From Volvariella volvacea V23 (taxonomy: Eukaryota; Basidiomycota; Agaricomycetes; Agaricales; Pluteaceae): a DNA stretch of 53,406 bases. The position numbers and the translations under genes were made by a program. Under the pieces are notes generated by a model. That model searched no databases and was not told where the DNA came from. It saw nothing but the letters and a program-made list of their open reading frames with translations. Location: NCBI GenBank assembly GCA_000349905.1, contig KB722749.1, positions 1 through 53,406 on the forward strand. Reading direction: 5' to 3'. Shown here one piece after another: positions 1-50,378 of the stretch. Positions within the stretch are counted from its first letter, which is position 1. Every line of letters starts with the position of its first letter.

Positions 1-2
1 AC

Positions 3-1050
3 GCCCTCCTCACCTATTCCCAAATTGGAAACTTTTTCGCCGCCTTGGAGTTTGCCAAGGCCGTGATTCCTCACCTCGCCCGCTACGGCAACAACAACTT
101 CAAATGGAAGTGGGCGGTGGAACAACACCATTCCGAGGGCCAAGACGAGATGAGCGATGATGACGCCGTCGTGCTAGGTGACTGGCACGTCCACGTCGCC
201 TTCGACCTCAGAAAGCCTTGCACAGAGCGAGGCCATATCTTTGACTTCCAAGGACAGCATCCCAACATCAAGAGATGTGGAGGTCGACTCCAGTGGTCAA
301 ACACCCTCAAATACCTGGAGAAGGATGGGTGCTTCGACACCAACATTGAGGATGACAGCGACTCTCCCACGGAGAGCGACGACGTATTCCAGAAAGCGTT
401 ATCTCAACCAACATATGAGGAATACTCACAAACAGTAAGCAAATAATGCGACTATTACCATATATATACTAACCAAACATTAGATTGCAGAAGGAGACCC
501 TAGGGCCTTCTGCAAGTCTTACCTCAGCATTAAGGCATACGGACAAAACCGCTACGCCAAGCCGAACAAGACTTGGCAATCAAAAAGGACACTCGCCGAC
601 TTCACCAACGTCCCCTCCCTCATGTCCACCTACGCCGACTATATCAACAGTGACGAAGTGATGGAACGCCCAAAGACCCTCATCGTTGTCTCCGACACCC
701 GCTACGGAAAGACGCAATGGGCACGTGCAATAACGCCCAACCACTCCTATATGTCAACAGAGTGAAATGTTGACCGTATCGATGAAGATTGCAAGCTCCT
801 CATATTTGACGACATCCCCATGAGTGAGCTGCTGGTCAAAGGGAGGTGGAAGGCGTTCTTTGGAGGACAGGAGGAGATGGACGTGACAGGGAAATACAGG
901 GCTTCTCGTCACATCACAAGGGGTTGGAAGGGCTTTATTTACCTAAGCAACTCTGATCCCACAAAAGAGGAGGGTGTCACTCCTGCAATAAAATCGTACA
1001 TAGAACAGAATAGCTACATTGTACATTTAACAGAAAAGCTATTCGATTAA
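3..1050 (+). pseudogene. CRESS-DNA-virus-like replication-associated protein (Rep), 5'-partial, one in-frame stop
   Basis: This reads as a rolling-circle Rep of the geminivirus/genomovirus type. The frame is open from the window edge, so the start lies upstream. Exon 1 shows motif I (LLTYSQ), motif II (WHVHVAF), a GRS-like stretch (FDFQGQHPNIKR) and motif III (YLEKDG, with the catalytic Tyr). A 49-nt intron (435-483: GTAAGC, branch ACTAAC, TAG) joins exon 2 in phase 0. Exon 2 carries an SF3 helicase: Walker A-like SDTRYGKT (Ser replaces the first Gly), Walker B LLIFDDI and motif C FIYLSNSDP. Between Walker A and B an in-frame TGA (763-765) sits where the family usually has Trp. The same frame then continues to TAA at 1050. 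The single nonsense change suggests a recent endogenous copy. Read-through or an assembly error is not excluded. Confidence 0.88.
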
Positions 1051-1159
1051 TAGTAAAATCTCTTTTTTTGTAAAAGAAATAAGAAAGACAAAAAAAAAGA
1101 ACTACTAAATACCCCCTGTGTTAGATGAGGACCAGGGATTTGGTTTGGAATCCAGCGCT

Positions 1160-1239
1160 CCCACCCACTCCGAATCTCTCCAGGGCCCCTCCCCCCCCTT
1201 TCAGGGGGTCCCCTCCCTTCCGAGATTCTCTGGGGTGGG
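1160..1239. repeat. GC-rich hairpin downstream of Rep
   Basis: CCCACCC (1160-1166) pairs with GGGTGGG (1233-1239), and GAATCTC (1172-1178) with GAGATTC (1222-1228). The interior is an asymmetric C-run/G-run (CCCCTCCCCCCC... GGGGGTCCCCTCC). Outside it, TTTGGAA (1144-1150) matches TTCCAAA (1253-1259). It lies between Rep and the second viral unit and shares its core with two other sites in the element. A replication-origin or terminal structure is an inference. Confidence 0.7.
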
Positions 1240-1398
1240 TCCCTGGCGCATGTTCCAAACGCGCACCCTTGGCACTCTAAAGCCTCGATCCAACGCTAAA
1301 GCCGGTGGGGGTATATTCAAGACGCAATGTGTTATCAGATAAGATAAGGACAGCTCTATCACCAGCAAAGTTCTTTTTAACGTTCAATAGATTCTAGA

Positions 1399-1453
1399 GG
1401 CCATTCCGTGGCCCCTCCCCCCCCTTCGGGGGGTTCCCTCCACTTCATTGGCC
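1399..1453. repeat. GC-rich stem-loop with C-run/TTC/G-run apex
   Basis: GGCCA (1399-1403) pairs with TGGCC (1449-1453), GTGG (1409-1412) with CCAC (1440-1443), and the apex is a C8 run, TTC and a G6 run. It is the second copy of the element's hairpin motif and sits about 75 bp before the left inverted repeat of the capsid-candidate unit. No standard TAATATTAC nonanucleotide was found in the loop. Confidence 0.7.
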
Positions 1454-1503
1454 TCAGTACCAAAAAGAGGGTGTTTGTTTATTCATATTTATTGGTACTT
1501 TTT

Positions 1504-1595
1504 CATCAGAATCCGGGCACCATCAACGGAGAACTCACGCTGTCAGGTTACCATCAGAATTCCATCAGAATCAGGCACCATCAACGGAGAACTCA
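1504..1595 (+). repeat. Iteron-like direct repeats
   Basis: A 22-bp sequence starting GGCACCATCAAC occurs twice (1516-1537 and 1574-1595). The 9-mer CATCAGAAT occurs three times (1504, 1552, 1563), and its reverse complement occurs twice in the distal repeat near 4194-4214. Small repeated motifs near a hairpin are what Rep-binding iterons look like in CRESS DNA viruses. That role is inferred. Confidence 0.6.
1531..1571. repeat. Left 41-bp inverted repeat of the viral unit
   Basis: These 41 bases are the exact reverse complement of 4194-4234. The pair encloses both genes of the second unit (1820-2437 and 2650-3867). No clear target-site duplication is visible outside the pair. Confidence 0.9.
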
Positions 1596-1819
1596 TGTCA
1601 ACCTATCCCTGTTTACTCGGGAACCCGCAGTCAAAACTACTTAAAAGACGTCAAATGACTTCTCTATCTCTACTAAACAACCACATCCGTATACAAACAT
1701 GTCCACACCCAAAACCAACATATATAGCCCCCTTCCAACTACTCCCCCCCCCCACCACCTTGCTCCCCTCCACCAACTTCCACTCCCACTCTCTCCCCTT
1801 ATTACGAGCATCAAATCCT

Positions 1820-2437
1820 ATGGCATCCTCACTCCACCGTGAAGACACACTCCTTATCGAAGAACCCAACCCCGATCGACCAATACCTCCACCTCCTGAA
1901 TGGCCAATCGGAGTAGTCCTTCGAATTATCGTCGTCCATGCCTCCCACTGCAAGTGGCACCAAACATGGTGCTCAACCTGCATCCCTGAACTTCAAACTT
2001 GGGAATATCAATCACGCCGCTTTGGCACGTGCCCGCCGAGAGATTGCTCATGCATACCAGATGCGTGGATATTTTCGGTAAGTACTAATTAGTCTATATT
2101 TAGCCCTCCTAATTATAGGCTAATTATTACTTACTTCTCACAGCCGATACCGCCCATACACGAAACGCAAGAAAGCGCCCTCATCACCTGGCGTTTGTTT
2201 CAGCGATTCAAAAAAAGAGACCTCACAGAAGAGGTCCGACAAGGCCAGCAACTCTACTACGCCGAGATCCTCCTAAACGACGACAGAGAGGAGTTACAAC
2301 CATGGGAACAGGAAAGGACTTTTCGTTACATACCTGATGCACCACACCCCCCCAACTCAACTCGAGACCAATGGTGGTACCAATGCATCCATAAAGTACC
2401 TGATCCCTTTGTAAAGAAATGTAACAAATGCTGGTAG
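1820..2437 (+). CDS. Cys-rich 183-aa protein of the viral element, two exons
   Basis: I do not recognise this protein. The ATG at 1820 follows a TATATAG box at about 1720. Exon 1 (1820-2077, 86 codons) joins exon 2 (2144-2437) in phase 0 across a 66-nt intron with GTAAGT, several TAAT branch candidates and CTCACAG. The N-terminal half has a Pro-rich stretch, then a Cys/His cluster (CKWHQTWCSTC, later CPPRDCSC) that could bind zinc. The C-terminal half is charged (RFKKRDLTEE, ERTFRYIPD) and ends in KKCNKCW. It lies upstream of the capsid candidate on the same strand within the inverted-repeat-bounded unit. It may be an accessory, movement or regulatory protein. Nothing in the sequence decides between these. 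Confidence 0.6.
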
Positions 2438-2506
2438 GGTACTTAGCGGTGGGAGGGCGGGACTTTTCTTTTCTTTTTTTTTCGCATAGGTCTATAATCG
2501 CATGAA

Positions 2507-2560
2507 CGAATTCTATATAAATCAGTATATAAATATAAATCAGTCTATAAATATAAAGAT
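2507..2560 (+). promoter_or_regulatory. TATA-repeat promoter candidate for the capsid-candidate gene
   Basis: TATAAATCAGT-type units are repeated about three times just after a T-rich tract, 90-140 bp before the ATG at 2650. It is the only strong TATA cluster between the two genes of the unit. Confidence 0.5.
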
Positions 2561-2649
2561 TCTTTCTCGCAATCACATGATGAAGTAAGGAGTGAAACAA
2601 ATAAAAATAAATATTTAAACATCACTTAAACGAAAAACACCCCAAACCC

Positions 2650-3867
2650 ATGTCTGACTCGAACACCCACAAGAAAAAGCGTTCCACTCAGATCACCGAT
2701 TTCTTCTTAGCTTCTCGCACTACTACCACCTCCCTAACTACCAAAAGATCAAAGACCACCCACAGACGCTCATCATCAAGTGTCTCCACTCTTCCCAACC
2801 GCAGCAACGCACTACCCGTCAACCGCACAGCCTTTTTTGGACGTTTCTCATCCAAGTCCACTATCCCAAAGTACACCAAACAAAACGTCTTCTCTAGACG
2901 TTACGGAAAACTACCAGCAAACCGGAAATACAATCAAACCACCACCATGGCAACCGCAAGCACAGGGCTAGGCCACATCAAGGCCGCACAAGACCTCGGT
3001 AAGAAAATTGAGGAAACCACACGCTATTACGAAACGCGCACAGTCATCCCAACCAAAGGTGCCATCAACCAACCCGCTACATTCCAACGTAGCAAGATCA
3101 ATGTGTCCATGCGAACGGCCAATCATTGGCCAACATGGACCATCTGCCTATTCGCAATGGACTTCACCAACATTGGCAACCACTATACGGAGAACATAGG
3201 ATACCACCACAAATCTACCATCGACTTGGTCAAGACCACCACCAAGTTTCTCTACAAAACCACCAGCAACCAGGCGTGGAAGCGCCGCATCATAGTCTGG
3301 ACCCATCCAGACTTCAACGAATTCAATCGTTGCACAGACGTGTCCGGAAATGGACAAACCATTGGGGAGCACGAGCTCCTTCCCTTTGTCGGCACCCTGA
3401 CTGGCAACTACACCACACGCAGGGCCATCATAGCGTGGCAAGAAACCTACTTCAACAACGAAGTAGAGAACAACGTCGACAGGAGAATCGATTATCTCCT
3501 GGAAGCACCCTTACACACCAAATACCCGTCCACCCCATTCTACTGGGGCACCACAGCATCGGTAGGGGTGCTATACGATGCAACGGACACTATACCCAGC
3601 AAGGAACACCACCTAGACTCTGGGATATACCTGGATGACACCTGGCAACAAGGGCCAGGTCTGATTGAATACAACGACAGGATAGAAAGAGGTGGGAACG
3701 TACTTGGACAATGGGACAAGATCAAGCACAACAAGAACACGTACATGACGGTGATATGGGAACCGGAAGGACGGCATTCAGGGGAGTCGCTACCAAGAGA
3801 AGAAGCAACGGGATTGGACAATTCGCTATCTATAGATGTAATACATACTATACATTGGCGAGAGTAG
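2650..3867 (+). CDS. Putative capsid-like protein of the CRESS-like element (405 aa)
   Basis: This is an uninterrupted single-exon frame of 405 codons. The first about 95 residues are rich in Lys, Arg, Ser and Thr (KKKRSTQITDFF, TTKRSKTTHRRSSSS, RRYGKLPANRKYN), as in the DNA-binding arm of many CRESS capsid proteins. The rest is Thr/Trp/Tyr-rich, with alternating hydrophobic segments suggestive of beta strands (TWTICLFAMDF, WKRRIIVWTHPDF) and a conserved-looking end (MTVIWEPEG). The assignment as capsid rests on basic N terminus, size and position next to a Rep, not on a recognised motif. The intact frame contrasts with the broken Rep next door. A histone-like or nuclear protein of fungal origin is the alternative, but the flanking 41-bp inverted repeats tie it to the element. 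Confidence 0.55.
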   Translation: MSDSNTHKKKRSTQITDFFLASRTTTTSLTTKRSKTTHRRSSSSVSTLPNRSNALPVNRTAFFGRFSSKSTIPKYTKQNVFSRRYGKLPANRKYNQTTTMATASTGLGHIKAAQDLGKKIEETTRYYETRTVIPTKGAINQPATFQRSKINVSMRTANHWPTWTICLFAMDFTNIGNHYTENIGYHHKSTIDLVKTTTKFLYKTTSNQAWKRRIIVWTHPDFNEFNRCTDVSGNGQTIGEHELLPFVGTLTGNYTTRRAIIAWQETYFNNEVENNVDRRIDYLLEAPLHTKYPSTPFYWGTTASVGVLYDATDTIPSKEHHLDSGIYLDDTWQQGPGLIEYNDRIERGGNVLGQWDKIKHNKNTYMTVIWEPEGRHSGESLPREEATGLDNSLSIDVIHTIHWRE

Positions 3868-3984
3868 ATTTTCCCGTCTTAGAAAAAAAAGGATTTTTGC
3901 AGCCTAGAATCGTTTCCCAGGTTTTCATTGAGGGTAGGACCAAAAACCTTAGAAAGCACACTAACGTGCGACCTTGGAAATTCC

Positions 3985-4060
3985 ATTCCGGGGAACACCT
4001 ACAGGACTCCTCCCCTCCCTTTGGGGGGTCCCCTCCTTCCGGGGTTCACCTCCATTCCAT
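3985..4060. repeat. Third copy of the GC-rich hairpin core
   Basis: CCTCCCCTCCC is followed by GGGGGGTCCCCTCC, as in the 1160 and 1399 units. The flanking stem is weaker here. It lies between the capsid candidate and the right inverted repeat. Confidence 0.5.
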
Positions 4061-4193
4061 TGCCCTACGGGCATGACTTATAACTGTGGCTGAGAATAGT
4101 GCTTCGCACGCGCTACCGCGCAACAAGGATAAGACTTCCAGTCAGAAGGGTAGAGGCTTGTTTATTTATATTTGTGATTTTGTTGGTACCTAC

Positions 4194-4234
4194 ATTCTGA
4201 TGGAATTCTGATGGTAACCTGACAGCGTGAGTTC
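4194..4234. repeat. Right 41-bp inverted repeat of the viral unit
   Basis: Exact reverse complement of 1531-1571. A TTTATTTATATTT...TTGGTAC stretch just before it (4159-4190) also resembles, in direct orientation, 1477-1500, so both boundaries share more than the repeat. Confidence 0.9.
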
Positions 4235-4276
4235 CCCATCCTTTGTTTCCAAGTCTTTTTGATCAACCAATGGGAT

Positions 4277-4347
4277 GCTGGCTGCTTTTTTTTTTTCAGC
4301 CTATGGGGTGAATCTTATTCGCCCCATAGGCTTCTTTTTTCCAGCCA
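4277..4347. repeat. Hairpin at the viral/host junction
   Basis: A 15-bp stem (4299-4313 with 4317-4331, GCCTATGGGG pairing CCCCATAGGC, one G-T) closes on a 3-nt loop. An outer CTGGCTG (4277-4283) pairs with CAGCCAG (4341-4347) across T-rich arms. It lies between the right inverted repeat and the truncated Crinkler gene. Confidence 0.7.
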
Positions 4348-4364
4348 GAACCCCAGAGTCCTGA

Positions 4365-4380
4365 CCCCTAACCCCCTAAC
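4365..4380 (-). other. Telomere-like TTAGGG(G) pair at the truncation point
   Basis: The plus strand reads CCCCTAACCCCCTAAC, two imperfect copies of the basidiomycete telomere unit TTAGGG on the minus strand. The stop codon of the truncated Crinkler kinase (4376-4378) lies inside it. Two units can occur by chance. Confidence 0.4.
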
Positions 4381-6651
4381 AAGTTGGTGCGCAGCCATAG
4401 TCCACACAGAGACGATGAACCTCGCTCGAGTATCGCTTGGTAAATTTGATGCATACCCTGCGCCCATGTTCAGTTTGTGCATAAAAGACCAGCCGATTAG
4501 TTTCTGGCTGTGCGACTTCGTATGTAAATCTTTGGAGATGGCCGTCAAAGTCGGTATACGTGCGGGGGTAAGGGCAGGTCACTGTGGTAGGCGTTGTATC
4601 AAGATGAGGAATTGCATGGGAATAATGGCGCAATAATTTTTGCACAGTGGCCTTAAAGGATCCAAAGATACGAGCTGCCATTTCTTGCATGGAATAATCT
4701 GTGGCATGCCAACAAAGTGGGATAACCGGAGCCAGGATGTCAGCATGGATGTGTTCTCGGAAAACACACCCAAAGATGGCAATGTAAGGTCCTGATAAGA
4801 TACAATACAATCAACAATCAGGGAAAAGTTCGCAGGAAAATGCTGGTAGGGAGACATACCGAACACAGCGAGAAGGAAACAAGGGAAACGGGAATTTAAG
4901 TGTTCACCACTTTTGATGGTACGCGTGAACTGACGGTAGTAACACATTCCCTCCAGAAAGGGTTCAGCGCCACCATTTCCAACCTCATTTTTCCCTTCCA
5001 ATATAGCGCATACATACTGGTCTGTTTTATCCGTCACATGGCCATCCGTCGAAAAATTTGTTGATCCAACTTTTGCAGTCATTAACTTTACACCATATGC
5101 GGCTAGTAACTTCCGACACTCCTCCAAGCGCCGCCCTTCATCGCTGTAAAACGTGCACATGGCTTCTGAGAGCTTTAGCACAAAATCATTGTCTTCAGCG
5201 GTTGGTTGATAGCCTATACAGTCATCCACAAATTCAGCGAATATTCTCTCAAAGAGCGTGATCGGAATGGGATAGGCTGCATTGCGAGGACGATTGCATT
5301 GGTACTCCCCCTCTTTCTGCACTGCAGCGAAATTCTTCGGTTGTCCACCGGTAGAGAGAGCCTCTTGCTTCTTCAGGTAGTTCATTCGCCGTAGAATCAG
5401 GGCGTTAACACCTTCCCGTGCTATCGCTGTAGAACAGTAGTATTAGTACGACAATAGGACGGAGCAAATATCGGGCACCAACAACTAGAGTGATTTCGCA
5501 GAACAACGATGATATGAATATGATTTGGAGGGCAACCCGTAAAAATAGTGGAAATCCGATCTGTTGCGTTGACCAGTTCCTCGCCTTGATGTTTGAGATG
5601 GCTGTTGTAATTTTGTTCAGGTAACGATACTTTCAAGAGTTTAAAGTCAGCAGCTTTTGTTTGCAGGTGTGTCGCAATCTGGGTTTTGAGCGTGTAAAGG
5701 CTTGCATCGGATTTGAGTTGGACCTCAAATAAACTGTCCTTTCCACGACCAAAAACGGCGCAATTAATTCTGAGGACTGTATATTGCACCGAGTGGCCAA
5801 TGCACGTGCGGCCACGCAGCAATTAGCTGTGAACGCCATTCATTACGAACAATGACTGGGAGCCCACCTTTAGGCTTAACACACAAAATAAATTGCACTC
5901 CCTCCGATGTGCATGTGGGCAAAGCAGAGATCCTGTCAATAGGTTTCAACTCTCGCGATTCACATTCTAGAACGCGTTTGAATAGCGTGTCGCGTGGCTC
6001 AATGGACAAAGGCGTTAACTGATGAGAAACCAATGAAACCACATCCATGACGTTAGAGATGATCGTTGCACTTTACCAAGTAAGCTGGAGTGTAGTCGAA
6101 ACTGTCGTGATTTAATGTGATCGAGGACTTGTTGTAAAAAGCGTCCATAAGCGCATAAACAGTAGCGTTGGCAGGGAGTTGAACGTTGATCAAATTGTCC
6201 ATTCTGTGACCAGAAACGATGCAGTTAAGTCTGAGGACTGTATATCGAACCAAGTGGCCAATGCACATCAAACAATGATGAAACCAAGTTTAAAATGAAT
6301 CGACATCAATTAAAATGCAATATTCGACTTACATGGGACCCTTATGATGACGTGGACATGGTCTTCTGCAGGCTCCACTGGGAACAACTTGCCGATTTTC
6401 TTTGTAGGGCTCAGCATATCTTCATCATCGAGCTCAGGCTTTTGTGGAGCCTTGTCCTTTGCAATAACTAAAATCTCGACTTTCCAGAGGTCAAGCTGAT
6501 CTGCATTGATGCCCTGGAAGTAGTTTGGTTTCTTGGCGATGATGAGCTCCTTGAGGTTGTCAATTGTATCGTCTTTGTTGGTCTTTACTGAAAAGGCTCT
6601 GGCAAACAGCTCGCCATAGATGAGGCAGAAAAGGCAGATAGAGTTGGACAT
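4376..6651 (-). CDS. Crinkler-type effector: three header domains, nuclease-like domain, truncated kinase
   Basis: Six exons close in frame (6651-6333, 6237-6077, 6018-5868, 5776-5486, 5426-4860, 4791-4376; 634 aa). Residues 1-106 are a typical Crinkler ubiquitin-like header (LFCLIYGE, DNLKELI, LWKVEI, PAEDHVHVIIRVP). Two further header-like domains follow (LNCIVSG... and INCAVFG... ending HIHIIVVL), each entered through a phase-1 intron ending in nearly the same bases. Exon 5 carries a PD-(D/E)XK-like nuclease (DGHV... then ILEGKNE, the E-x-K pair). Exon 6 has the linker GPYIAIFG... and a kinase N-lobe (RRVCIKFTKRYSSEVHRLC, with the beta-3 Lys). The protein ends at CAPTC, before the hinge and catalytic loop, so kinase activity is lost. 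Crinkler nuclease-kinase proteins are known effectors or conflict toxins. Expression of this truncated form is unknown. Confidence 0.85.
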
Positions 6652-7187
6652 TGTAGGGCTTATCAAACTTGTCTGAGCTGCAAAAACAAATAAAATAGAA
6701 ATGCCTTTCGCGCGATGTGGAGATAACGTGGTTGTGGGTGAAGTGGCATCGGCATCAATAATGAGGTGTTGCTACTGTACCAATTGTCACAGGTCACATG
6801 CCACGTGATAACTGTGGTCTCCTCAATTTGGTTCCAGAACTGGCGAAATCCAGACCCACTTGTAGTCTATTGAACCTCGCTTCATGTCAAGTAACATAGC
6901 CTTTCTGAAACCAAGTTCGTCGCACTGACCAGCACCAATTGCGTTTACTGGGGTGCCGCCCCAAGGGTAGTGTGCACAAAACGTGAGAACAAAGAAAAAA
7001 TTCTATAACAGCATTAAACTAGGCTCGAGTGCAAGTACTTGACAAAACCCCACATCAGACCACAACGAAACCCTCCGCTCCAAGACCACTACCAGAGAAC
7101 ATAACGCACAGTGAAGAGCGTGTAGTCTAGTAGTAGTGAACCTACAAAATGAATATTAATTCAGTCAGTGTCCAGTGTCATGAATTA
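6652..7187. other. Intergenic, no gene seen
   Basis: No open frame with recognisable sequence. It holds the promoter side of the Crinkler gene. No TATA box stands out. Confidence 0.5.
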
Positions 7188-46071: not shown

Positions 46072-47156
46072 ATGATACTCGAAGGGTTGATCTTGTACTT
46101 ACTTCGTCCGGTAATGTTGTGTAAGGGTCGTAAGAATACCGTAAGCCCTATGTTGCCTCTTGGACGCATTCTCATGAGTCACACAGGTTGTACAACTCAG
46201 TAGTTCACACATGTCTGATGATGAAATCGTAGAAGCATGCAAACATGCCACCGCAATCGATCAGGGTACCTATTACATCGCCGAACTACACCGCATGAAC
46301 TCTGGCACTGTCTTTCGAATCACGAATGACACTGTCGTCAAACGAGATCGTTTGTCTCCATCCGAGCTGGATGCAGCAGAGCTTGTCCGTCAGCACACTT
46401 GCATCCCTGTTCCCTTTCATCAGCGTTGCATAATACCCACGAGCGTCTATGATGACAAGCACCTCGTCATGCAGCACATCGAAGGGGTAACCTTGTACAA
46501 GCTGTGGAGTTCAATGAGTTGGTGGATGAAGTTTCGAGTAGCGTTGACTATTCGGTATTACGTCTACCAGCTTCGTGGTCTTCCTTCTCGGTTGAATCTA
46601 TCTCAGCCTGGTCCTATTGGTGACTACGACAACCCATATTGCAAGGGAAGACTCTTCCCAGAATCCGGTGGTCCGACACGTTTTGACTCGTATGCGAGCC
46701 TTGCGTTCTGGTACGACGAGTGTCTGTACGTTCAGAAGAGGACAACAAAGCGGCCTAGCAACATCGAGATTGAACCTTTTGATCGTTCGCGCCCTTTGGC
46801 TATTGTTCATCAAGACCTCCACCTCAACAATCTTATGCTAGGGCACGACGGGCAACTGTGGGTGTTGGATTGGGGTATGGCAGGTGTCTATCCCGATTGG
46901 TTTGAATATGCAAATATGGCGATATTCGCTGGTACACCTATGGTGCCTGATTCGTGGAAGCGGTTGATACCGTGGATGTTTGGCAAGTTTGAAGGGCCTG
47001 GACAATTGTCATTCATTTATGCGATATCCAACGTATTGGATAATATGCCGCTTGATTTCGATGACTTTGTGCGTGTTTGATACATAAGCTCGTTAGGTGT
47101 GACTAATCGGGGACATTTAGATTGCTGAGTTGCGCGCTAAGGATACGTTCTCTTAA
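46072..47156 (+). CDS. APH-like phosphotransferase/kinase, intact copy (328 aa)
   Basis: Exons 46072-46140, 46187-47068 and 47121-47156. The N terminus (LEGLILYLLRPVMLCKGR) is hydrophobic. The kinase fold then follows: TVVKRDRLSPSEL with the beta-3 Lys, HLVMQHIEGVTL at the hinge, a catalytic loop IVHQDLHLNNLML (H-x-D...N) and the metal-binding LDWGMAGVYPDWFEYA (D-W-G in place of DFG). The family is aminoglycoside phosphotransferase/choline kinase-like (APH), widely expanded in fungi with unknown small-molecule or protein substrates. An ATG at 46039 would add 11 residues. The 46072 start matches the paralogue. All motif residues are present, so activity is plausible. Confidence 0.82.
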
Positions 47157-49268: not shown

Positions 49269-50378
49269 ATGACCCTTGAAGGATTGATCTTTTATCTACT
49301 TCGCCCATTGATACTGTGCAAGGGGCGCAGGAATGCCGTGAGTCCGATTGTTTACCACCTCGGTACAATCTCACACGCCACACAGCCTACAGAACTCGGT
49401 ACTTCACATATGTCAGACGAAGAAATCGTGGAAGCGTGTAAAAGTGCTACTGCAATTGATGCAAATACCTATTACATTCCCGAACTGAATCGAATGAACC
49501 CTGGTTGCATTTTTCTTATCTCGCACGACACTGTCGCCACACGGAGAGACCTGTCTCCGTCTGAGCTAGACGTTGCAGAACTTGTCCGCCAGCACACTTG
49601 TATTCCCGTCCCATATCACCAGCGTTGCACAGCCCCTACAGGTGCATTTAGGGAAAGACATCTCGTCATGCAATACATCGAAGGCGAGACTCTGTACACT
49701 TTATGGGACTCTGTGAGCTTGTGGATGAGGTTTCGAGTAGCCTTGACGGTTCGCTACTACGTTTATCAACTTCGGTCTCTCCCCTCTCGGCTGCATCTAT
49801 CAAAGCCTGGCCTTGTCGGTGACTATGATGACCTGTACTGTGATGGAAGACTCCTTTCCAAGTGCCCTCCCAAGCGATTTGACTCCTACTCAAGTTTGGC
49901 ATTCTGGTATGACGAGTGCTTATTTATGCAGAAGAGGGACAAGAGGAATTGTCATCCCAACATTACCCCTTTCGACCGTTCCCGTCCTTTGGCCGTGGTC
50001 CACCAAGATCTCCACCCCCGCAATCTGCTCCTCGGCGCTGATGGGCAGCTGTGGATATTGGATTAGGGCATGGCAGGTGTATACCCTGATTGGTTTGAAT
50101 ATGCAAACAGGGCAATATTTGCTGCGAGAAATTCTGAACTGCCTGATTCGTGGAAGCGGTTAATACCATACATGTTTGGTAGATTTGAAGCACCTGGACA
50201 GCTGCCGTTCATTCGTGCTATACCTGTTGTTTTGGAAAATATGCCCCCGGATTTCTACGATTTTGTACGTGTCTACAAGTGTAGTCTCTGCTTGTGTCAC
50301 TAATAATTTACTTTCCAGCTCGCGGAGATGCGAGCAAGAGATAAAGTGAGGGAATCGGAATCTAAATCATTTCCATGA
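49269..50378 (+). pseudogene. APH-like kinase, duplicated copy with nonsense at the D-W-G motif
   Basis: Exons 49269-49337, 49386-50264 and 50319-50378 parallel the intact gene, with high identity through LSPSELD.AELVRQHTCIPVP, WMRFRVALTVRYYVYQL and VVHQDLHPRNLLLG. An in-frame TAG (50064-50066) replaces the Trp of LDWGMAG, so translation stops one residue after the metal-binding Asp. The beta-3 Lys segment TVVKRD has also become TVATRRD, removing the ATP-binding Lys. Sequence after the stop is still family-like (GMAGVYPDWFEYANRAIFA), so decay is recent, or the truncated pseudokinase form is retained. Confidence 0.82.

What the first reader, a model, noticed from the sequence alone, without database searches (positions are those of the whole stretch)
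1..4250. Integrated CRESS-DNA-virus-like element with two units in a fungal chromosome
A Rep with geminivirus/genomovirus-type motifs (LLTYSQ, WHVHVAF, YLEKDG, SDTRYGKT, LLIFDDI) is followed by a separate 2.7-kb unit with a Cys-rich spliced gene and a basic-armed capsid candidate. Genomoviruses carry Rep and capsid on one circle of about 2.2 kb. Here each unit is bounded by its own GC-rich hairpins, which suggests a multipartite or enlarged fungal ssDNA virus or plasmid lineage.
Basis: partly seen in the sequence, partly recalled or inferred. Interest (0 to 1): 0.9.

Follow-up and report, generated by a model that had tools for sequence, protein, structure and literature searches.

The report
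Integrated fungal ssDNA virus, new capsid
At the end of a fungal chromosome piece lies a broken copy of a small single-stranded-DNA virus whose replication gene is of a known type but whose predicted shell protein matches no named family, which points to a little-known branch of fungal DNA viruses.

Summary
Window 3-1050 is a geminivirus/genomovirus-type Rep, apparently spliced, cut off by the contig's start and interrupted by an in-frame stop. Window 2650-3867 is an intact 405-aa protein with a basic arm. Its predicted core is a jelly roll; the best matches in the viral structure library are CRESS capsids, several of them genomovirus capsids. Two sequence searches found nine relatives among 5.8 billion proteins, and there is no Pfam, PHROG or PDB sequence match. 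The element was found once in the genome and abuts Crinkler-type fungal genes, so it is an endogenous viral element. The two-unit reading is plausible but unproven: the capsid unit (about 2.7 kb) is framed by 44-nt inverted repeats, and Rep and capsid genes are followed by related C/G-rich blocks. No origin nonanucleotide or circle was found, and the Rep unit is incomplete. Split genomes are already known in fungal genomoviruses. An unexpected feature is a motif in the capsid arm, psi-T-D-theta-theta in 7 of 7 relatives with an arm, with R/K four residues on in 6 of 7. It resembles a PCNA-dependent (PIP) degron except for the first Q/N; its function is untested. Verdict: new variant of a known kind.

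The parts
3..434 (+). Rep exon 1 (HUH endonuclease half): motif I LLTYSQ, motif II WHVHVAF, GRS-like FDFQGQHPNI, motif III YLEKDG; 5' end cut by the contig start
   Evidence: four relatives at 47-54% (alignment A2); hhalign of A2 to a geminivirus-type plasmid Rep, probability 86.5, its residues 5-106. No Pfam family over its cut-off.
435..483 (+). predicted 49-nt intron of Rep (GTAAGC...TACTAAC...TAG), phase 0
   Evidence: sequence; not tested by RNA
484..762 (+). Rep exon 2 up to the stop: Gemini_AL1_M domain and P-loop SDTRYGKT (691-714; first P-loop residue is S, not G)
   Evidence: PF08283 E 7.7e-7, 29.6 bits, cut-off 24; the only match in the genome
763..765 (+). in-frame stop codon in Rep
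   Evidence: described only, not mended
766..1050 (+). Rep tail: Walker B LLIFDDI, FFGGQEEMDVTGKYR, motif C region YLSNSDP, end of gene
   Evidence: tblastn: 14 plasmid records match, the 10 listed are all phytoplasma plasmids, 7 of these 10 annotated replication-associated protein and 3 hypothetical, best E 8e-3
1158..1241 (+). C/G-rich hairpin A after Rep
   Evidence: z -2.15, 16 of 500 shuffles fold as well; in a wider stretch z -0.96; core shared with B and C
1395..1458 (+). C/G-rich hairpin B
   Evidence: z -3.24, 2 of 500 shuffles; z -3.45, 0 of 200
1475..1490 (+). TTGTTTATTCATATTT, direct repeat of 4158-4173
   Evidence: 94% identical over 16 nt (D11)
1516..1595 (+). iteron-like block: 22-nt perfect direct repeat at 1516-1537 and 1574-1595
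   Evidence: D7
1528..1571 (+). left arm of 44-nt inverted repeat
   Evidence: 98% complementary to 4194-4237; no third place found in the genome
1820..2077 (+). Cys-rich protein, exon 1 (86 codons, 6 Cys)
   Evidence: no Pfam family for the piece given, 1820-2092
2078..2143 (+). predicted 66-nt intron, phase 0
   Evidence: GTAAGT...CAG; not tested by RNA
2144..2437 (+). Cys-rich protein, exon 2 (97 codons, 3 Cys); 183 aa in all
   Evidence: no Pfam family for the piece given, 2195-2437
2650..3867 (+). capsid protein, 405 aa, intact; basic arm of about 120 residues, then predicted jelly-roll core
   Evidence: nine relatives; A3; core model pTM 0.62; best viral fold matches are CRESS capsids; all 50 rows shown by pdb_via are entries of viral capsids
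2683..2718 (+). STQITDFFLASR: PIP-degron-like motif in the arm, residues 12-23
   Evidence: kept in relatives; the one PDB sequence returned is the p21 peptide, E 0.56
3984..4053 (+). C/G-rich block C after the capsid gene
   Evidence: core 64% identical to A; folding z +0.63, not special
4158..4173 (+). TTGTTTATTTATATTT, direct repeat of 1475-1490
4194..4237 (+). right arm of the 44-nt inverted repeat; last sequence clearly of the element
4298..4332 (.). 16-bp hairpin, 3-nt loop, between T runs; element or host not decided
   Evidence: z -6.67, 0 of 200 shuffles
4379..6700 (-). host DNA: Crinkler-type gene region
   Evidence: 80% paralogue on C32 begins at window 4379; PF20147 in 6310-6666 (E 6.4e-24) and 5421-5822 (E 1e-13)

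Best explanation
It is an endogenous copy of a fungal circular ssDNA (CRESS) virus related to genomoviruses and geminiviruses. In the free virus, Rep would nick and restart rolling-circle replication in the nucleus, and the 405-aa protein would form the jelly-roll shell. The integrated copy is most simply read as two adjacent viral molecules: a Rep unit (contig start to about 1500) and a capsid unit (about 1528-4237), the latter opened within a long hairpin, so that its two arms now lie at its ends. Rep is interrupted and cut off, so the copy as assembled cannot replicate on its own. Shown: Rep type, capsid fold prediction, one copy found, inverted repeats, host flank. Inferred: rolling circle, opening at the hairpin, two molecules.
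Confidence: 0.72

Rival explanations
1. One enlarged circle: a single-molecule virus of about 4.3-5 kb with Rep, Cys-rich protein and capsid on one strand, integrated once. The inverted repeats and C/G-rich blocks are intergenic signals inside one genome.
For: The three genes are adjacent, co-directional and about 4.3 kb in all. Several contigs with relatives are 4.2-5.0 kb long: 4236 and 4986 (Rep), 4527 and 4938 (capsid).
Against: No contig length is shared between the Rep and the capsid lists. The inverted repeat frames exactly the capsid unit. Related blocks follow each gene.
Confidence: 0.33
2. A virus-derived transposable element: the capsid unit with 44-nt terminal inverted repeats is, or was, mobile, as described for the geminivirus-like transposon of Tuber melanosporum with 37-bp TIRs (PMC3198968, section 8 read).
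For: Near-perfect inverted repeats at both ends of the unit.
Against: Found once, inverted repeats included. None of the element pieces scanned matches a transposase in Pfam. No target-site duplication seen by eye, though the Tuber element has no obvious one either. The Tuber genome has 42 Rep copies or remnants.
Confidence: 0.1
3. The 405-aa protein is a host protein that happens to have a beta-sandwich fold (for example a GH16-like lectin or glycosidase).
For: The first, weaker model had GH16 carrageenases as best PDB matches, E 1e-4.
Against: Viral library, both models: CRESS capsids rank first. No Pfam match better than E 0.098 in any of 10 family members. Only nine relatives found. Beside a viral Rep. 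Basic arm.
Confidence: 0.04

Closest known systems
[quoted passage not shown]
   Same: Fungal ssDNA virus; geminivirus-type Rep with a putative intron; Rep and capsid on different segments that share common regions; capsid fold near AYVV 6f2s in that paper and among the matches here
   Different: Its segments are about 1.7 kb with one ORF each; here the capsid unit is about 2.7 kb with a second, Cys-rich gene ahead of the capsid gene. Its nonanucleotides TACTCTTCA/TACTCTTAG are not found here. This copy is integrated and broken.
Fusarium graminearum gemytripvirus 1 (FgGMTV1; search listings with abstract starts, and mentions in PMC10731770)
   Same: Split genome in a fungus, genomovirus-type
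   Different: Three free segments; no sequence compared here
One-circle Genomoviridae (SsHADV-1 type; about 2.2 kb and ambisense by recall)
   Same: Rep motif set; predicted capsid fold matches several genomovirus capsids
   Different: Gene order and strand, size; no known capsid came up in the sequence searches
Geminivirus-like Rep of phytoplasma plasmids (NC_007717.1)
   Same: All three Rep pieces line up with it in order
   Different: 32% and 23% identity over the two BLAST pieces; a bacterial plasmid gene
Geminivirus-like transposon of Tuber melanosporum (PMC3198968, section 8 and passages read)
   Same: Geminivirus-type Rep in a fungal chromosome, inverted repeats, interrupted Rep
   Different: 42 Rep copies or remnants, with transposase ORFs and no capsid mentioned in that section for the fungal element; here one copy, with capsid
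PIP degron of p21/Cdt1 (signature Q/N-x-x-psi-T-D-theta-theta-x-x-x-R/K, PMC3973308, passages)
   Same: psi-T-D-theta-theta and, in 6 of 7, the basic residue at +4
   Different: Q/N at the first position is S (6) or K (1) in all 7; in a viral capsid arm; binding untested

Membership tests
Geminivirus/genomovirus-type Rep (Geplafuvirales) | HUH nuclease motifs I, II, III in order, with the GRS stretch between II and III | tested here: met
   Motifs in 3-434 and conserved in 4 relatives; profile match, probability 86.5, to a PF00799-bearing Rep over the same motifs. PF00799 itself does not match the genome's DNA (where nothing rang in the controls either) or exon 1.
Geminivirus/genomovirus-type Rep (Geplafuvirales) | Central domain and superfamily 3 helicase (Walker A, B, C) | tested here: met
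   PF08283 over its cut-off; Walker B and C match plasmid Reps. The P-loop begins with S instead of G and a stop lies between A and B.
Genomoviridae | Rep nests within the family in a tree | not tested
   The searches tried brought in no genomovirus Rep
Genomoviridae | Capsid related to genomovirus capsids | tested here: inconclusive
   Fold match, 7 of the 42 BFVD matches at E <= 0.001, but no sequence match and low TM-scores
Genomoviridae | Nonanucleotide in a stem-loop origin | tested here: inconclusive
   Five forms tried, none within one mismatch in 1-4300; the start of the Rep unit is missing from the contig
Genomoviridae | Rep and capsid genes on opposite strands of one small circle (feature by recall; not true of the split members) | tested here: not met
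   Same strand, over 4 kb in all
CRESS-virus single jelly-roll capsid | Basic arm and jelly-roll core | tested here: met
   predicted structure of modest confidence only
Multipartite ssDNA mycovirus | Genes on separate circles that share a common region | tested here: inconclusive
   Related C/G blocks and a 16-nt repeat after both genes; no circles could be looked for
TIR transposon | Several copies in the genome | tested here: not met
   One copy found
PIP degron (CRL4-Cdt2 substrate) | Q/N-x-x-psi-T-D-theta-theta-x-x-x-R/K | tested here: not met
   All positions but the first Q/N in 6 of 7. It may still work like one.

The most novel reading that the evidence does not exclude
A separate lineage of split-genome fungal ssDNA viruses with its own capsid family, whose capsid arm carries a p21/Cdt1-like PIP degron. 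Through it the shell protein would bind the host's sliding clamp PCNA and be removed while DNA is being copied, so that packaging waits until replication is over.
Probability: 0.18. Interest if true: 0.85.

Novelty: new variant of a known kind. Interest (0 to 1): 0.6.

Why it matters
Only a few ssDNA viruses of fungi have been described (abstract of PMC10731770), and the fungal endogenous copies in the parts of PMC3198968 that I saw are of Rep genes. A copy with an intact capsid gene gives a handle on a capsid family that the sequence searches here do not link to any known one, together with its gene order, ends and host. If the arm motif binds PCNA, it would be a simple way for a replication-dependent virus to time packaging, and it can be tested with one peptide.

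Tried and rejected
Free relatives: scans of IMG/VR with the 405-aa protein, Rep exons 1 and 2, and both alignments found no relative, nor did genome contigs, which holds bacteria and archaea only, with A1. A motif pattern meant to bring in genomovirus Reps as references found 0 stretches, so the tree asked for was not built. Plasmid records: no match for Rep exon 1, exon 2 or P0008; 14 for the Rep tail. PDB by sequence: nothing for the 405-aa protein or exon 1; only chance-level rows for exon 2, the tail and the A2 profile (E 0.93 or more). PHROGs: nothing for the 405-aa protein and nothing better than E 0.12 for the Rep pieces. Pfam matches of the Rep exon 1 and tail to unrelated families (best E 0.0046 and 0.029) are below their cut-offs and taken as noise.

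PIP reading, against: the profile of seven arms (A5) finds Mediator subunit 23 (E 0.31) and an antibody chain, not a PCNA peptide. The p21 match of the single sequence is only E 0.56. No paper in the library held 'PIP degron', 'virus' and 'capsid' together, which is a statement about that search only; the ten papers listed for PIP-box, PCNA and geminivirus terms hold no 'PIP-box'. For: in 20,000 letter shuffles of each 100-residue arm the psi-T-D-theta-theta core appears in 0.01-0.02%; the seven are related, so these are not seven independent cases. The three family members without an arm (P0005, P0011, P0012) were left out of that count.

Telomere: four TTAGGG units in a row occur nowhere in the assembly, so whether the contig start is near a chromosome end is open. 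A second Rep-like place, C29:130565-130774, is at noise level (E 0.07) and was not pursued.
Full report
What was checked. The window is the first 53,406 bases of a 785,286-base contig in a 35.4-Mb, 54-contig assembly. The finding covers its first 4.25 kb. The host is taken to be a fungus from short predicted introns and Crinkler-domain genes beside the element (PF20147, E 6.4e-24 and 1e-13); its lineage was not determined.

Rep. The gene begins before base 1, so its first codons are not in the contig. Exon 1 (3-434) ends at a predicted 49-nt intron in phase 0; exon 2 (484-762) runs to an in-frame stop at 763-765; the same frame continues from 766 to 1050. I searched the three pieces apart. Exon 2 matches the geminivirus Rep central domain PF08283 at E 7.7e-7, 29.6 bits against a cut-off of 24, and this is the only match in the genome. 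The tail matches 14 plasmid records, best E 8e-3; the 10 listed are all phytoplasma plasmids, 7 annotated replication-associated protein and 3 hypothetical. The best of these Reps carries the geminivirus catalytic domain PF00799 at E 3.7e-20, and the three pieces fall on it in order: 5-106 (hhalign, probability 86.5), 196-248 and 279-368. Exon 1 has four relatives, 47-54% identical, on contigs of 568-4986 bases; they keep motifs I, II and III and the FD-x-x-G-x-H-x-N-I stretch. PF00799 itself does not reach exon 1, so the nuclease half is divergent. The P-loop reads SDTRYGKT, with S where G is usual (by recall, and G in the plasmid Rep).

The second gene. Between Rep and capsid lies a gene with two predicted exons (1820-2077, 2144-2437; 66-nt phase-0 intron) for a 183-residue protein with nine cysteines. 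Pieces from both exons have no Pfam match. It could be a zinc-binding regulator or silencing suppressor like the small genes of geminiviruses; that is a guess.

Ends and units. A 44-nt inverted repeat, 98% complementary, frames the Cys-rich and capsid genes (1528-1571 and 4194-4237; alignment score 88 against a shuffle maximum of 32), and no third place was found in the genome. Two C/G-rich hairpins follow Rep and a related block follows the capsid gene. Their cores align at scores of 41-51 against maxima of 26-29 in plain letter shuffles, but only the two after Rep fold better than dinucleotide shuffles (z -2.15, -3.24 and +0.63). A 16-nt direct repeat lies downstream of both (1475, 4158). 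Shared non-coding stretches are how BcssDV1's extra segments were recognised (PMC10731770 section 13), so two units are a fair reading. None of the longest-contig lengths of the 4 Rep relatives recurs among those of the 9 capsid relatives, which points the same way but weakly. Against it, none of five origin nonanucleotides was found within one mismatch in 1-4300, the Rep unit is incomplete, and 4.2-5.0 kb contigs would also suit one larger circle.

Integration. Rep exons 1 and 2, the capsid and the spacer regions were each found once in the genome, apart from the inverted repeat's second arm and a noise-level Rep match. The right flank is a Crinkler gene region with an 80% identical paralogue on contig C32 that begins at window 4379; the strip 4238-4378 scores no better on C32 than on unrelated loci (19-20 in all seven loci tried). 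The junction therefore probably lies within 4238-4378. That strip holds a 16-bp hairpin (4298-4332, z -6.67) that I cannot assign.

The arm motif. All seven family members that have an arm carry psi-T-D-theta-theta 12-22 residues from the start (70 in P0003, whose predicted start is probably too early), and six of seven have R or K exactly four residues further on; P0003 has Q there (alignments). PMC3973308 (passages) gives the PIP degron as Q/N-x-x-psi-T-D-theta-theta-x-x-x-R/K and says that the T-D pair is rare among PCNA partners outside substrates of CRL4-Cdt2. The viral motif lacks only the first Q/N. The one PDB sequence that phmmer returns for the window's arm is the p21 peptide (E 0.56), but a profile of all seven does not return a PCNA peptide. 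The motif is conserved; its function is open.

Verdict. An endogenous, broken copy of a fungal CRESS virus with a new capsid family; the two-unit layout is plausible and not proven. Split genomes in fungal genomoviruses are known (BcssDV1; FgGMTV1, seen in listings and mentions only), so the new parts are the capsid family, the larger capsid unit with a second gene, the inverted-repeat frame and the arm motif. Searches for endogenous fungal genomovirus capsids in the paper library listed none that I could recognise from titles and abstract starts.

Noticed in passing
window 4298-4332 (outer 7-nt repeat 4278-4284 and 4342-4348): A 16-bp hairpin with 3-nt loop between T runs, itself inside a CTGGCTG/CAGCCAG repeat, in the strip between element and host; z -6.67; the outer repeat was seen by eye.
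   Followed up: partly
window 2683-2718 and relatives P0001-P0004, P0010, P0013: PIP-degron-like motif conserved in the capsid arm.
   Followed up: yes
window 4379-6700, minus strand; C32:109298-111177 and others: A family of Crinkler-domain genes: eight further matches in the genome, 72-82% identical in DNA.
   Followed up: partly
window 691-714: Rep P-loop begins with S instead of the usual G (SDTRYGKT).
   Followed up: no
P0012 and P0013 (contigs of 1589 bases each): Two halves of a capsid relative, 70% and 55% identical to the window, on contigs of the same length: perhaps one broken or spliced copy elsewhere.
   Followed up: no
window 46211-47080 and 49269-50066: Two similar neighbouring APH-type phosphotransferase-like ORFs, the first over the PF01636 cut-off, the second below it.
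   Followed up: no
G000:C29:130565-130774: Noise-level resemblance to Rep exon 1 (E 0.07, 27%).
   Followed up: no
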